The position numbers and the translations under genes were made by a program. Positions 18,333 to 60,268 of a stretch of DNA of 64,000 nucleotides are shown here, piece by piece. Source of the DNA: Dehalobacter sp. DCA (lineage in GTDB: Bacteria; Bacillota; Desulfitobacteriia; Desulfitobacteriales; Syntrophobotulaceae). Where the stretch lies: NCBI RefSeq assembly GCF_000305775.1, contig NC_018866.1, forward strand, positions 558,001 to 622,000, in the 5' to 3' direction. The notes under the pieces are model-generated. The model searched no databases. It saw only the letters and a list, made by a program, of their open reading frames with translations, and had not been told where the DNA came from. Every line of letters starts with the position of its first letter. Position 1 is the stretch's first letter.

Positions 18333-19333
18333 TAACAAAAAAACAATTTGTGATCCGGTTCATCGTTGGGAATATGCTGTTGTTTATCCTCTTAGGACCT
18401 TTCATTGTTTTTTACGGTCCTTTTCATTCGTTGACGTATGTTACGGTCAGTACGATTCTGTCGTCCCGCCATCCTCAAGTCGCGGATTTTTTTTTAGCGG
18501 AGCAGAAAATTGCAGAAATCACTCAGAAATATGGAAATACATCAGTTACCGTGGAACCTGTCATCCAGCATATTGACCATCAAATTGTGGATGAAGAAAA
18601 CGGGATCAGGCTAGAGAATATTGAAGGTAAATATTTTAAAGGCATTGTCATGCTCGTACGTAATCCTCTTCAGATTGAAGTAGCGGCTACCAAAGAGATT
18701 GGCGTAGCCGGACAACGCTTATCAGAACTGGTCACTGCGGAGGGTGCGGTAGCCGGTATAAATGGCGGAGGCTTTTATGATCCGAATTCTCAGGGGAACG
18801 GCGCTTATCCGGATGGGATCACCGTCAGGGATGGGCAGCTCATTCATGAAAACCTGAACGCAGCTAAAAGTGCGAATCTGATCGGTTTTAACAAGGAAGG
18901 AAAGCTGATCCTCCGGACAGTCTCTGCCAAGGAAATCTCTTCAGGGATTATCGGTGATCTTGGGATTCGGCATGCGGTCAGCTTCGAACCAAACCTTATC
19001 CTGAACGGAGAACCTCAGATCAAAGGTGACGGAGGTCAGGGCCTTGCTCCCAGGACAGGAATCGGGCAAAAAGCCGATGGTACGGTTGTTTTTGTTGTGA
19101 TCGACGGCAGACAGCCTGACTGGAGTATGGGAGCCACACTGCGGGATCTGATGAATGTATTTATAGAATACGGGGCTGAAAATGCAGTGAATCTTGACGG
19201 CGGTTCTTCAACGGAATTGTTCTATCAAGGTCGGATTATCAATCAACTTTGGAACATCTACGGTGAACGTTATATGCCTACAGCTTTTGTGGTCATGCCA
19301 GGAAAGAATCAGAGTGGGGTGGGGCAGAATTGA
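18329..19333 (+). CDS. Phosphodiester glycosidase family protein (NAGPA domain)
   Basis: 334 residues with an N-terminal membrane span (about 10-32) and an extracellular domain of the NAGPA/phosphodiester alpha-GlcNAcase type. Motifs include NGGGFYDPNSQGNGAYPDG, GLAPRTGIGQ, VVIDGRQPDWS and NLDGGSSTELFYQG. Relatives cleave sugar phosphodiesters or act on exopolysaccharide. TTG 18329 overlaps the upstream stop (TTGA), with AAGGA 11 nt upstream; GTG 18320 is the alternative but is too close to that site. Central gene of a three-gene operon with 4-nt overlaps on both sides, suggesting coupled translation. Confidence 0.85.
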   Translation: MITKKQFVIRFIVGNMLLFILLGPFIVFYGPFHSLTYVTVSTILSSRHPQVADFFLAEQKIAEITQKYGNTSVTVEPVIQHIDHQIVDEENGIRLENIEGKYFKGIVMLVRNPLQIEVAATKEIGVAGQRLSELVTAEGAVAGINGGGFYDPNSQGNGAYPDGITVRDGQLIHENLNAAKSANLIGFNKEGKLILRTVSAKEISSGIIGDLGIRHAVSFEPNLILNGEPQIKGDGGQGLAPRTGIGQKADGTVVFVVIDGRQPDWSMGATLRDLMNVFIEYGAENAVNLDGGSSTELFYQGRIINQLWNIYGERYMPTAFVVMPGKNQSGVGQN

Positions 19334-56773: not shown

Positions 56774-56881
56774 TCGGGGGGCGTTTGCCCTTTTACATAT
56801 CAACGAGAAGAAGATACAATATGCCTATAGCCGCATAAACAAAAAGGTGGGCCACGTAGACATAAAGGAGAGACTTAACCA

Positions 56882-57047
56882 ATGCCGGAAAAGATAAAAG
56901 TAGCCTTTGTCTGTGTTCACAACTCCTCCGCTCACAAATGGCAGAGGCCATCGCCAAGAATATATTAAGACGGCCAAAATCATCGAAGAAAAAATACTGG
57001 AGCTCAAATGCAGCGTGAATATGAAGTCTTATGTGTCTTTGCCTTGA
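56882..57047 (+). pseudogene. Remnant of an arsC-type arsenate reductase gene
   Basis: ATG after AAAGGAGAG reads MPEKIKVAFVCVHNSS, the start of a thioredoxin-coupled ArsC, but a one-base loss in the active-site loop (NSCRSQMAEA expected; the bases read TCCTCCGCTCACAAATG) throws it out of frame. The other frame gives RSQMAEAIAKNIL. Most of the middle is missing, and a piece like the family's C-terminus (KIIEEKILELK) follows to a stop at 57045-57047. The catalytic P-loop is destroyed. Confidence 0.78.
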
Positions 57048-57117
57048 TCGTCAAGTAATATTTTTTCGTATATTGAAAAGTAAGCCAATTCGATGTAGTA
57101 TTTTAGAAGACCTTTTA

Positions 57118-57155
57118 ATGGAGGATCGTTTTTTGTATGGAGGATCGTTTTTTGT
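57118..57155. repeat. 19-bp tandem duplication spanning a translation start
   Basis: ATGGAGGATCGTTTTTTGT occurs twice head to tail (57118-57136 and 57137-57155). Each copy holds an ATG, a GGAGG and a TTG. Only the second copy is in frame with the following gene. Confidence 0.95.
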
Positions 57156-58411
57156 CCGATTTGAATTTATCCGCGAAAATTACAGACGCGCTGTGCTATG
57201 CTGAACAGGCTTTGACAAAACAAACCTGTATCATAAATCCAATCATTGAGAAGAACCATCAACGTGTCCTCAAAGCTTTCCAGGAGGCCAGAGTCTCAGC
57301 TTATAATCTGAACGGAACAACCGGCTACGGACTTGGCGATTCCGGGAGAGAAAAACTTGATACGGTGACCGCATCCATCATGGGTACTGAAAAAGCCATC
57401 ATCAGGCACCAGTTTGTATCGGGTACCCATGCGATTGCATCAGCGCTCTTTGGTGTTCTCCGGCCTGGAGATCATTTTATTTCTGTTACCGGGATGCCGT
57501 ATGATACGCTTCAGCAGGTGATCGGAATTAAAAACAACATTTCCGGCAGCCTGGCTGACTGGGGCGTGTCTTTTGATATCCTGCCTTTGGATGCTGATAG
57601 TCAGATTCAAATGGAAAAACTGGCTGCGATGGTGACTCCGCAAACGAAGCTGTTTATCATCCAGCGTTCCAAGGGTTATGAATGGAGAAACTCTGTTTCC
57701 ATTGCCCAGATCAGTGAATTTGTTGGCTATGCCAAAACGCATTTTCCGGAGATCGATATCTTCGTCGATAATTGCTACGGCGAGCTTGTTGAAGACCAGG
57801 AACCCGGACATGTGGGGGTAGACCTGCTGGCAGGATCACTAATCAAGAATCTCGGAGGCACGCTGGCCCCGACAGGCGGCTACATTGCCGGCAGAGAAGA
57901 TTTGGTCACGAAAGCCGCGGCCAGGTTTACCGCACCCGGCATCAATGCCGATGTGGGAGCAACCCTCGATAATCTTCGGCTCATGTACCAGGGACTGTAC
58001 TTCAGCCCGCTGACGGTCAGTGAAGCGATCAAAGCTGCAGTTTTTTCCTCGGCCTTTTGGTCCAGACTGGGTTTTGAAGTCCATCCGGGTCCGGAGGATC
58101 TGCGGACGGATATCATTCAGGCGGTAAAATTGAATTCCAAAGAAAAGATGCTGGCCTTTTGCCAGGGTCTCCAGAAAGGTTCGCCGATCGATTCGCATGT
58201 TCTGCCGCTGCCTTCGGAGATGCCAGGCTATACGGACGAAGTGATCATGGCCGGAGGAACTTTCATTCAGGGAGCCACGAGCGAATTTTCTGCCGATGGT
58301 CCGATTAGAGCCCCTTATGCCGTATATATGCAGGGCGCGATTTCTCATATCTATGTGAAAAACGCTAATATTTCAGCTGCGCAAATGCTTGAACAAAATC
58401 ATCTGTTATAA
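57137..58411 (+). CDS. Methionine gamma-lyase family / aluminium-resistance-like PLP enzyme (YnbB-like)
   Basis: 424 residues from ATG 57137. Fold-type I PLP enzyme of the YnbB family: FVSGTHAIASALFGVLRPGD, DNCYGELVEDQEPGHVGVDLLAGSLIKNLGG with the PLP lysine in GSLIKN, and TAPGINADVGA. The reaction is not established; 'aluminium resistance' is a legacy name. The start is doubtful: TTG 57152 has GGAGG 8 nt upstream in the second repeat copy, while ATG 57137 would use the GGAGG of the first copy at 12 nt. Position after hfq-spoVK matches Bacillus ynbB. Confidence 0.88.
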   Translation: MEDRFLSDLNLSAKITDALCYAEQALTKQTCIINPIIEKNHQRVLKAFQEARVSAYNLNGTTGYGLGDSGREKLDTVTASIMGTEKAIIRHQFVSGTHAIASALFGVLRPGDHFISVTGMPYDTLQQVIGIKNNISGSLADWGVSFDILPLDADSQIQMEKLAAMVTPQTKLFIIQRSKGYEWRNSVSIAQISEFVGYAKTHFPEIDIFVDNCYGELVEDQEPGHVGVDLLAGSLIKNLGGTLAPTGGYIAGREDLVTKAAARFTAPGINADVGATLDNLRLMYQGLYFSPLTVSEAIKAAVFSSAFWSRLGFEVHPGPEDLRTDIIQAVKLNSKEKMLAFCQGLQKGSPIDSHVLPLPSEMPGYTDEVIMAGGTFIQGATSEFSADGPIRAPYAVYMQGAISHIYVKNANISAAQMLEQNHLL

Positions 58412-58452: not shown

Positions 58453-58986
58453 ATGGTAAGAATAAGACGCGATATGATGAACAATCCGTATAGCCAATTT
58501 CTTCAGGAAATCATTGAGATTATTCTGATCGTTTTTGCCTTGTCCTGGCTGCTAAAAACTTATCTGATCGGGTTTGCCCATCTTGAAGGAGCGGAAATGA
58601 TGCCGACACTTTCACTGGACAGCCAGGTGCTGGTTGAAAAATATTTTTACCGCAGCATTGACGCTTTGGACAGGGGAGATGTCATTCTCTATTCAGATAA
58701 CGGTGTAGAAAGCATCAAACGGGTAATCGGCTTACCAGGTGAGAAAGTAGAAATTAAAAACGGTTATACGTATATTAATAACAAACCAATTTACGAACCT
58801 TATGCCAATACACCAAAGGCATATACATTTTCAATGGTTGTTGTGCCGGAAGACCATGTTTTTGCGTTGAATGACAATCGGGCGAGTAAGAATGATTCCC
58901 GTTCATTCGGCAGTGTCCCGATTCAGAGCATAGAAGGCAAAGCCCTGTTCTGCTACTGGCCGCTGAGCAGTGTTCAAATCCTGTAG
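58453..58986 (+). CDS. Signal peptidase I homologue lacking the catalytic serine
   Basis: 177 residues with an N-terminal membrane span (about 19-40) and an extracellular part with the S26 boxes: GAEMMPTL (box B), RGDVILYS (box C), SIKRVIGLPGEKVEI (box D, Lys at 89) and LNDNRASKNDSRSFGSVP (box E). Box B should read S-M-x-P; here the serine position (48) is glutamate, GAA, while the lysine base and all structural boxes are kept. It therefore should not cleave signal peptides by the known Ser/Lys mechanism. Follows the YnbB-like gene by 41 nt and may be co-transcribed; a terminator follows. Confidence 0.85.
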   Translation: MVRIRRDMMNNPYSQFLQEIIEIILIVFALSWLLKTYLIGFAHLEGAEMMPTLSLDSQVLVEKYFYRSIDALDRGDVILYSDNGVESIKRVIGLPGEKVEIKNGYTYINNKPIYEPYANTPKAYTFSMVVVPEDHVFALNDNRASKNDSRSFGSVPIQSIEGKALFCYWPLSSVQIL

Positions 58987-59079: not shown

Positions 59080-59115
59080 TAATTTTACCTGGAATCTTAA
59101 TTTTACCTGGAATCT
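59080..59115. repeat. 18-bp tandem duplication upstream of ddl
   Basis: TAATTTTACCTGGAATCT occurs twice head to tail (59080-59097, 59098-59115) in the 187-nt gap before ddl. A second small tandem duplication within 2 kb of the one at 57118. Confidence 0.95.
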
Positions 59116-59173: not shown

Positions 59174-60268
59174 ATGAACAACAAAACGAAAGTGCTTGTT
59201 ATCTTTGGCGGTCAATCGGGGGAACATGAAGTTTCGGTCATTTCTGCAGCGTCAGTCATCAAAGCGCTACATGCTGACCGGTATGAGATTCAGACCATCG
59301 GGATCACCAAGGAAGGAAGCTGGTATTGGGGGGCAAGACCGGAAGCGTGGAAGGAAGCCAAAGAAGATATCACGGACGGCGCCAAACAGGTCGCAGTCGT
59401 TTTAAACCCGCAAAAACCTTACTTTCAGGCTATAGACGGAAGTGAACTGCCGGATCAGGGCAGATGTGATATTATTTTCCCGGTCATGCATGGCCCCAAA
59501 GGGGAAGATGGTACGATTCAGGGGCTTTTCGAAATGGCGGGGTTCCCCTATGTAGGTTCAGGTGTGCTGGGTTCTTCTCTCGGAATGGACAAAGACCGGA
59601 TGAAGGCCGTTTTCAAAGAAGCCGGGCTGCCGATAGTGCCGCACCTTACCTTGCTTCGAAGTGAAATCAATGCTGCACCCGAAGCAGCGGTGAAACGCAT
59701 CTCAGACAGCATTGGTTTTCCATGTTTTATCAAACCAGCCAATCTCGGTTCCAGTGTCGGTATTTCCAAAGCTGAAGACGGTAAGCAACTGCTGGAAGCT
59801 TTGATCTACGCAGCAAAATTTGACCGGAAAATTGTGATCGAAAAAGGTGTGAAGGCAAGGGAAGTTGAACTGAGCGTCCTTGGCAATGAAAGTGCCAAAG
59901 CCTCCATCCCCGGTGAAATTAAACCGGCCAAAGATTTTTATGATTATGAAGCTAAATACCTGGATAATAGCTCAGAATTGATTATTCCAGCCATATTGAG
60001 CCAGAAATTGATTGAACAGCTTCAGTCCTATGCAGTGATTGCTTTTGAGGCCGTCGGCGCTTCGGGGCTAAGTAGAGTTGATTTCTTCGTTACTGAAGAC
60101 GAGCAAATCTTTATTAATGAAATCAATACAATGCCTGGCTTTACGCAAATTTCGATGTACCCAAAACTGTGGGAAGCCAGCGGCTTAAGTTACAGCCTGC
60201 TGCTTGATGAACTGATCAGACTTGGATTTGAAAAATTCAGAGATGATGCCGAAAGAAGACTTTCCTGA
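59174..60268 (+). CDS. ddl: D-alanine--D-alanine ligase
   Basis: 364 residues. FGGQSGEHEVSVISA at the N-terminus, PVMHGPKGEDGTIQGLFE, ATP-grasp body with KPANLGSSVGISKA and YEAKYLDNSSELIIPA, and GLSRVDFFVTEDEQIFINEINTMPGFTQISMYPKLW (metal and ADP ligands). Makes the D-Ala-D-Ala dipeptide for peptidoglycan. The loop carries Tyr in FYDYEAKYLDN as in D-Ala (not D-Lac) ligases. Length normal. Confidence 0.96.
   Translation: MNNKTKVLVIFGGQSGEHEVSVISAASVIKALHADRYEIQTIGITKEGSWYWGARPEAWKEAKEDITDGAKQVAVVLNPQKPYFQAIDGSELPDQGRCDIIFPVMHGPKGEDGTIQGLFEMAGFPYVGSGVLGSSLGMDKDRMKAVFKEAGLPIVPHLTLLRSEINAAPEAAVKRISDSIGFPCFIKPANLGSSVGISKAEDGKQLLEALIYAAKFDRKIVIEKGVKAREVELSVLGNESAKASIPGEIKPAKDFYDYEAKYLDNSSELIIPAILSQKLIEQLQSYAVIAFEAVGASGLSRVDFFVTEDEQIFINEINTMPGFTQISMYPKLWEASGLSYSLLLDELIRLGFEKFRDDAERRLS

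What the first reader, a model, noticed from the sequence alone, without database searches (positions are those of the whole stretch)
58453..58986. Signal peptidase I homologue with glutamate in place of the catalytic serine
Box B reads E-G-A-E-M-M-P-T-L, where family enzymes have S before M-x-P-T. The codon is GAA, two base changes from TCA/TCT. The base lysine (K89), the GDVI box and the DNRxxSxDSR-type box E are all kept, so the fold is under selection. It could be a regulator or chaperone of another peptidase, or use a new mechanism.
Basis: partly seen in the sequence, partly recalled or inferred. Interest (0 to 1): 0.65.

Follow-up and report, generated by a model that had tools for sequence, protein, structure and literature searches.

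The report
Catalytically dead signal peptidase look-alike
A bacterial protein that looks like the enzyme which trims secreted proteins has lost its cutting machinery but is still kept intact by evolution in most of its bacterial family, so it probably now binds or regulates secreted proteins rather than cutting them.

Summary
The 177-aa ORF at 58453-58986 (+) is a bona fide type I signal peptidase (S26) homologue with Glu48 (GAA) at the nucleophile position. The Glu is shared by four species of the genus, so it is neither a sequencing error nor a single-strain loss. These two box E changes, not the Glu, define the group. All 16 scorable orthologues in the ynbB–ddl slot of this family have Asn for Gly272 and no Ser278, whereas all 118 scorable other signal peptidases compared have Gly and Ser. 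After that shared step the nucleophile drifted to E, D, T, A or G (kept as Ser in 5 of 17) and the Lys was lost three times. A canonical, separate lepB is present in the same genome. dN/dS is 0.12-0.37, so the gene is under purifying selection. The order's other families carry an ordinary active-type signal peptidase in the same slot. Best reading: a membrane-anchored pseudoenzyme, functionally analogous to SipA/SpsA but not a member of the pilus system, as several carriers have no sortase. Ligand and function are untested.

The parts
58453..58986 (+). Signal peptidase I-like pseudoenzyme, 177 aa ('sipX' in this report)
   Evidence: PF10502 and TIGR02227 over cut-off; AlphaFold2 model best PDB matches SpsB Z 12.4 and SipA 4n31 Z 11.3
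58486..58566 (+). N-terminal membrane anchor helix, residues 12-38
   Evidence: helix 12-38 in the model; FALSW motif invariant/near-invariant in orthologues
58594..58596 (+). [quoted passage not shown] coli Ser90)
58717..58719 (+). Lys89 at the general-base position (box D, E. coli Lys145), kept here, lost in 3 orthologues
58870..58872 (+). Asn140 in place of the invariant Gly272 of box E
   Evidence: N in 16/16 orthologues, G in 118/118 others
58888..58890 (+). Lys146 in place of Ser278 of box E
   Evidence: never Ser in 16 orthologues, Ser in 118/118 others
57137..58411 (+). ynbB (Met_gamma_lyase PF06838), conserved upstream neighbour
59174..60268 (+). ddl (D-Ala-D-Ala ligase), conserved downstream neighbour

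Best explanation
It is a positional orthologue of the ynbB-linked type I signal peptidase of the order that became a pseudoenzyme in the ancestor of most of this family. Shown: the invariant box E Gly became Asn and box E Ser278 was lost once, at the base of the clade; afterwards the Ser nucleophile changed about seven times and the Lys three times (parsimony counts), while fold, membrane anchor and frame stayed under purifying selection. Inferred: it no longer cuts signal peptides and acts as a membrane-anchored, non-catalytic binder, at the outer face of the membrane, of an exported protein or of the translocon/active signal peptidase, as a chaperone, scaffold or modulator. The canonical lepB elsewhere in the genome does the cutting.
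For: Glu48 in all four close species. Seventeen orthologues, all beside ynbB, in 17 of 25 family genomes. Gly272 to Asn 16/16 versus Gly 118/118; Ser278 lost 16/16 versus kept 118/118; Ser48 = S5 E4 G3 A2 T2 D1. One change at Gly272, seven at Ser, three at Lys on the tree; the clade has support 100/100. Box B strand residues R42, P45, T46, G47, invariant or nearly so in active-type enzymes, are relaxed. dN/dS 0.12-0.37, against 0.11-0.15 for the canonical lepB. Separate canonical lepB with GSMLPT, Lys and GDNR at G000:C1:1004403-1004870. [quoted passage not shown]). Gly272-Asn274 positions Ser90 (PMC12984324).
Against: No activity or binding assay. Five orthologues keep both Ser and Lys, so complete inactivity of the whole clade is inferred from box E alone. 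The binding role is by analogy, and part of the substrate-gripping strand is relaxed, so the groove may not bind ordinary signal peptides. The model is of middling confidence (pLDDT 71.7; residues 47-55 and 144-150, the active site itself, under 50).
Confidence: 0.8

Rival explanations
1. The protein is still a protease that uses Glu48/Lys89, or another residue, in a new mechanism.
For: K89, D141, R143, D148, S149 and R150 are all present; the gene is under purifying selection.
Against: The position is not conserved as Glu even within the family (E, D, T, A, G, S), and the Lys is V, E or R in three orthologues. Box E Gly is Asn in all 16 scored. In SipA the analogous Asp and a nearby Lys could be mutated without visible effect (PMC4049620).
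Confidence: 0.05
2. A partly active clade: orthologues that keep Ser and Lys (5 of 17) are real but altered-specificity peptidases, and only some lineages, including this one, became dead independently.
For: Ser and Lys both kept in G003, G009, G012, G017, G021.
Against: These five also have Asn for Gly272 and no Ser278, and relaxed box B residues; Gly272 is described as adjacent to the catalytic Lys with no room for a side chain (PMC4049620).
Confidence: 0.13
3. A decaying pseudogene on its way out.
For: Faster evolution than active-type enzymes (mean column entropy 1.33 against 0.61-0.71); absent in two genera of the family, with ynbB directly followed by ddl in G014 and G019.
Against: Open frame in every orthologue not cut by a contig end; dN/dS well below 1; 28 invariant columns across the 16 complete orthologues.
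Confidence: 0.02
4. Sequencing error or single-strain loss.
For: None found.
Against: GAA in all four species-level genomes G000, G001, G002, G004.
Confidence: 0

Closest known systems
SipA/LepA of Streptococcus pyogenes (PDB 4n31, 4k8w)
   Same: S26 fold; catalytic Ser replaced by an acidic residue; box E Gly272 replaced by Asn and Ser278 by a basic residue; residue at the Ser position not conserved among homologues
   Different: SipA sits in a pilus operon and works with a class B sortase; here the gene sits between ynbB and ddl, and no sortase was found in the carriers G000, G001, G010 and G015. SipA lacks the base Lys, this one has it. SipA's peptide cleft is described as conserved; here box B strand residues are relaxed.
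SpsA of Staphylococcus aureus
   Same: A dispensable signal peptidase I homologue lacking two conserved catalytic residues beside an active SpsB (PMC12445088)
   Different: Its sequence and box E state were not compared here; different organism and locus.
ynbB-linked signal peptidase I of the sister families of the order
   Same: Same gene slot after ynbB; best tree joins them with sipX (66/94), and joining sipX to the family's canonical lepB is rejected (p-AU 0.019)
   Different: All have Ser, Lys, GDNR and Ser278 where scorable.
Canonical lepB of the same genome (G000:C1:1004403-1004870)
   Same: Homologous, 40% identity
   Different: Has GSMLPT, VKRVIGLPG and GDNRPASYDSH, the full active-site set

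Membership tests
Type I signal peptidase, S26 (as homologue) | Sequence family match over curated cut-off | tested here: met
   PF10502 125.2 bits, TIGR02227 138.5 bits
Type I signal peptidase, S26 (as active enzyme) | Ser nucleophile in box B | tested here: not met
   Glu48
Type I signal peptidase, S26 (as active enzyme) | Lys general base in box D | tested here: met
   K89 present; lost in three orthologues
Type I signal peptidase, S26 (as active enzyme) | Box E Gly272 and Ser278 | tested here: not met
   Asn140 and Lys146
Type I signal peptidase, S26 (as active enzyme) | Proteolytic activity on signal peptides | not testable with these tools
   needs an assay
SipA pilus-assembly factor | S26 fold without the Ser-Lys dyad | tested here: inconclusive
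   Ser lost, Lys kept in this protein; fold matches 4n31 at Z 11.3, 125 residues, 4.1 A
SipA pilus-assembly factor | Genetic link to a pilus operon with class B sortase | tested here: not met
   neighbours are ynbB, ddl, lexA; no sortase in G000
SpsA-type inactive paralogue | Catalytically impaired second copy beside a canonical active-type signal peptidase | tested here: met
   canonical copy in G000, G001, G004; in G002 the locus is cut by a contig end. Sequence relationship to SpsA itself was not tested.

The most novel reading that the evidence does not exclude
A family-wide non-catalytic signal peptidase has taken on a dedicated regulatory or chaperone role in protein export, independent of pili and sortases, for example gating access of particular preproteins to the active signal peptidase.
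Probability: 0.3. Interest if true: 0.6.

Novelty: new variant of a known kind. Interest (0 to 1): 0.42.

Why it matters
The dead signal peptidases I found described are single proteins of pathogens (SipA, SpsA). Here an inactive-looking lineage can be traced at one fixed gene position from an active-type ancestor, with the order of loss visible (box E first, nucleophile and base later). That makes the question of what a non-cutting signal peptidase is for testable by comparing natural E, D, T, A, G and S versions outside the pilus context. It is also a caution for annotation, because TIGR02227 names it signal peptidase I.

Tried and rejected
Glu as an alternative nucleophile or acid: rejected because the position varies freely in orthologues. 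Sequencing error or single-strain loss: rejected. Absence of canonical lepB in G002, which would have forced this protein to be the enzyme: explained by contig C137 ending at base 19094 in that locus. Pilus/sortase role as in SipA: no sortase in G000, G001, G010, G015. Origin from the family's own canonical lepB: rejected, p-AU 0.019. RNA family search around the locus found nothing. The promoter/terminator scan gave 10 promoter-like sites against 6.3 expected and 7 terminator-like sites against 3.5 expected, none usable. A scan of genome contigs with the single protein found only distant active-type Lachnospiraceae/Bacillota enzymes. Literature searches found nothing on this gene in Dehalobacter or relatives and nothing held on Gly-272 mutagenesis.

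Full report
What is there. The ORF at 58453-58986 (+) encodes 177 aa. It matches Pfam Peptidase_S26 with 125.2 bits and NCBIfam TIGR02227 signal peptidase I with 138.5 bits. An AlphaFold2 model from a shallow alignment (mean pLDDT 71.7; the active-site loops 47-55 and 144-150 are under 50) matches S. aureus SpsB best (4wvj, Z 12.4, 128 residues, 2.9 A), with S. pyogenes SipA close behind (4n31, Z 11.3, 125 residues, 4.1 A). A helix at residues 12-38 is the expected membrane anchor. The gene lies between ynbB (a PLP enzyme, PF06838) and ddl, with lexA beyond on the other strand. The genome is one contig of 3,069,953 bases; from size and gene content I take it for a Dehalobacter, but this was not tested.

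Checking the observation. Codon 48, at the place of the catalytic Ser of box B, is GAA, and it is GAA in all four close species held (G000, G001, G002, G004). The base lysine K89 is present. The statement that box E is kept is wrong in a way that matters: N-D-N-R-A-S-K-N-D-S-R has Asn where all active-type enzymes compared have Gly (E. coli Gly272) and Lys where they have Ser (Ser278).

Comparison across the class. I extracted 137 distinct signal peptidase-like proteins, most of them from the 83 genomes of the class plus nine from elsewhere. Seventeen sit beside ynbB in genomes of this family ('sipX'). In the other 120, Ser is present in 120 and Lys in 120; Gly272 and Ser278 are present in all 118 where box E is not cut by a contig end. 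In sipX, Gly272 is Asn in 16 of 16 and Ser278 is never Ser; the Ser nucleophile is S in 5, E in 4, G in 3, A in 2, T in 2 and D in 1; the Lys is replaced by V, E or R in three genomes that also have Gly for Ser. The 120 are a large sample of the hits, not every hit.

History. On trees built without the trait columns, sipX is one clade (99 SH-aLRT in the quick tree; 100/100 in the careful tree). The careful tree joins it with the ynbB-linked signal peptidases of the sister family (66/94, not strongly supported), and a tree that joins it with the family's canonical lepB is rejected (p-AU 0.019). From the coordinates of the Pfam hits, read by eye, 35 of 36 order relatives outside the family have a signal peptidase directly beside ynbB; in the remaining one (G030) the ynbB hit itself is partial. 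The simplest account is that the ynbB-linked enzyme lost box E Gly and Ser278 once, and that the nucleophile then changed about seven times and the base three times. The gene is missing beside ynbB in two genera of the family; in G014 and G019 ynbB is followed directly by ddl.

Selection. Among the four close species dN/dS for sipX is 0.12-0.37 (0.12-0.18 in the five more divergent pairs), against 0.11-0.15 for canonical lepB and 0.08-0.15 for ynbB. The clade evolves about twice as freely as active-type enzymes by column entropy (1.33 versus 0.61-0.71), and the relaxed columns concentrate around the substrate and nucleophile strand (positions 40-48) and include box E. Twenty-eight columns are invariant in the 16 complete orthologues, among them S31 W32 in the anchor helix, the YEP stretch and the WP near the C terminus. 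So the fold and some surfaces are kept while the catalytic centre is not.

The second signal peptidase. The genome has a canonical lepB at C1:1004403-1004870 with GSMLPT, VKRVIGLPG and GDNRPASYDSH, also found in G001 and G004. In G002 it was not found, but the 94% identical flank runs to the last base of contig C137 (19,094 of 19,094), so this is an assembly gap.

Mechanism. In S. pyogenes SipA, Asp replaces Ser, Gly replaces Lys, Asn replaces Gly272 and Arg replaces Ser278; [quoted passage not shown] The Gly272-Asn274 tripeptide positions the nucleophile (PMC12984324). From memory, mutagenesis of E. coli box E also found Gly272 essential and Ser278 important; that paper is not held. By this logic all scored sipX proteins, including those that keep Ser and Lys, are probably inactive or nearly so. 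That is inference, not shown. In SipA the acidic residue at the Ser position could be mutated without visible effect, which fits the free variation here. S. aureus SpsA is a further inactive paralogue (PMC12445088). The sortase-dependent role of SipA cannot be general for this family, since no sortase was found in four carriers, including G000 and G001, each a single contig at 99% completeness or more.

Verdict. A new, lineage-wide pseudoenzyme variant of type I signal peptidase. The known kind is 'signal peptidase-like protein without the Ser-Lys dyad'; the differences are gene context, absence of a pilus/sortase link, retention of the Lys in most members, and a traceable order of loss. The function is most likely non-catalytic binding at the membrane surface; the partner is unknown.

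Noticed in passing
window 56801-57136: Between the spoVK-like AAA ATPase gene and ynbB the window has only about 360 bases with what look like remnants of an arsenic operon (a short start resembling an ArsC-like reductase), where G001 (L041:2034-3119) has an intact 361-aa gene that looks like an ACR3-type arsenite transporter; it appears deleted here. The gene names are by eye.
   Followed up: partly
window 59080-59115: A perfect 18-bp tandem duplication (TAATTTTACCTGGAATCT) in the sipX-ddl gap; two copies also in G001 (second with one change), one copy in G002 and G004.
   Followed up: partly
L063 (G022:C33), L155 (G014:C4), L146 (G019:C60): Two or three signal peptidase genes in tandem in the genus that lacks sipX between ynbB and ddl.
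   Followed up: no
L028 (G013:C2:6022-6492): A canonical signal peptidase of a family genome that groups with those of another family of the order (near G031 L012), suggesting transfer or contamination.
   Followed up: no
L054 (G015:C112), L055 (G010:C1:457425-457961): A further signal peptidase type with an insert of roughly 25 residues after the GDI box, with complete Ser/Lys/GDNR motifs.
   Followed up: no
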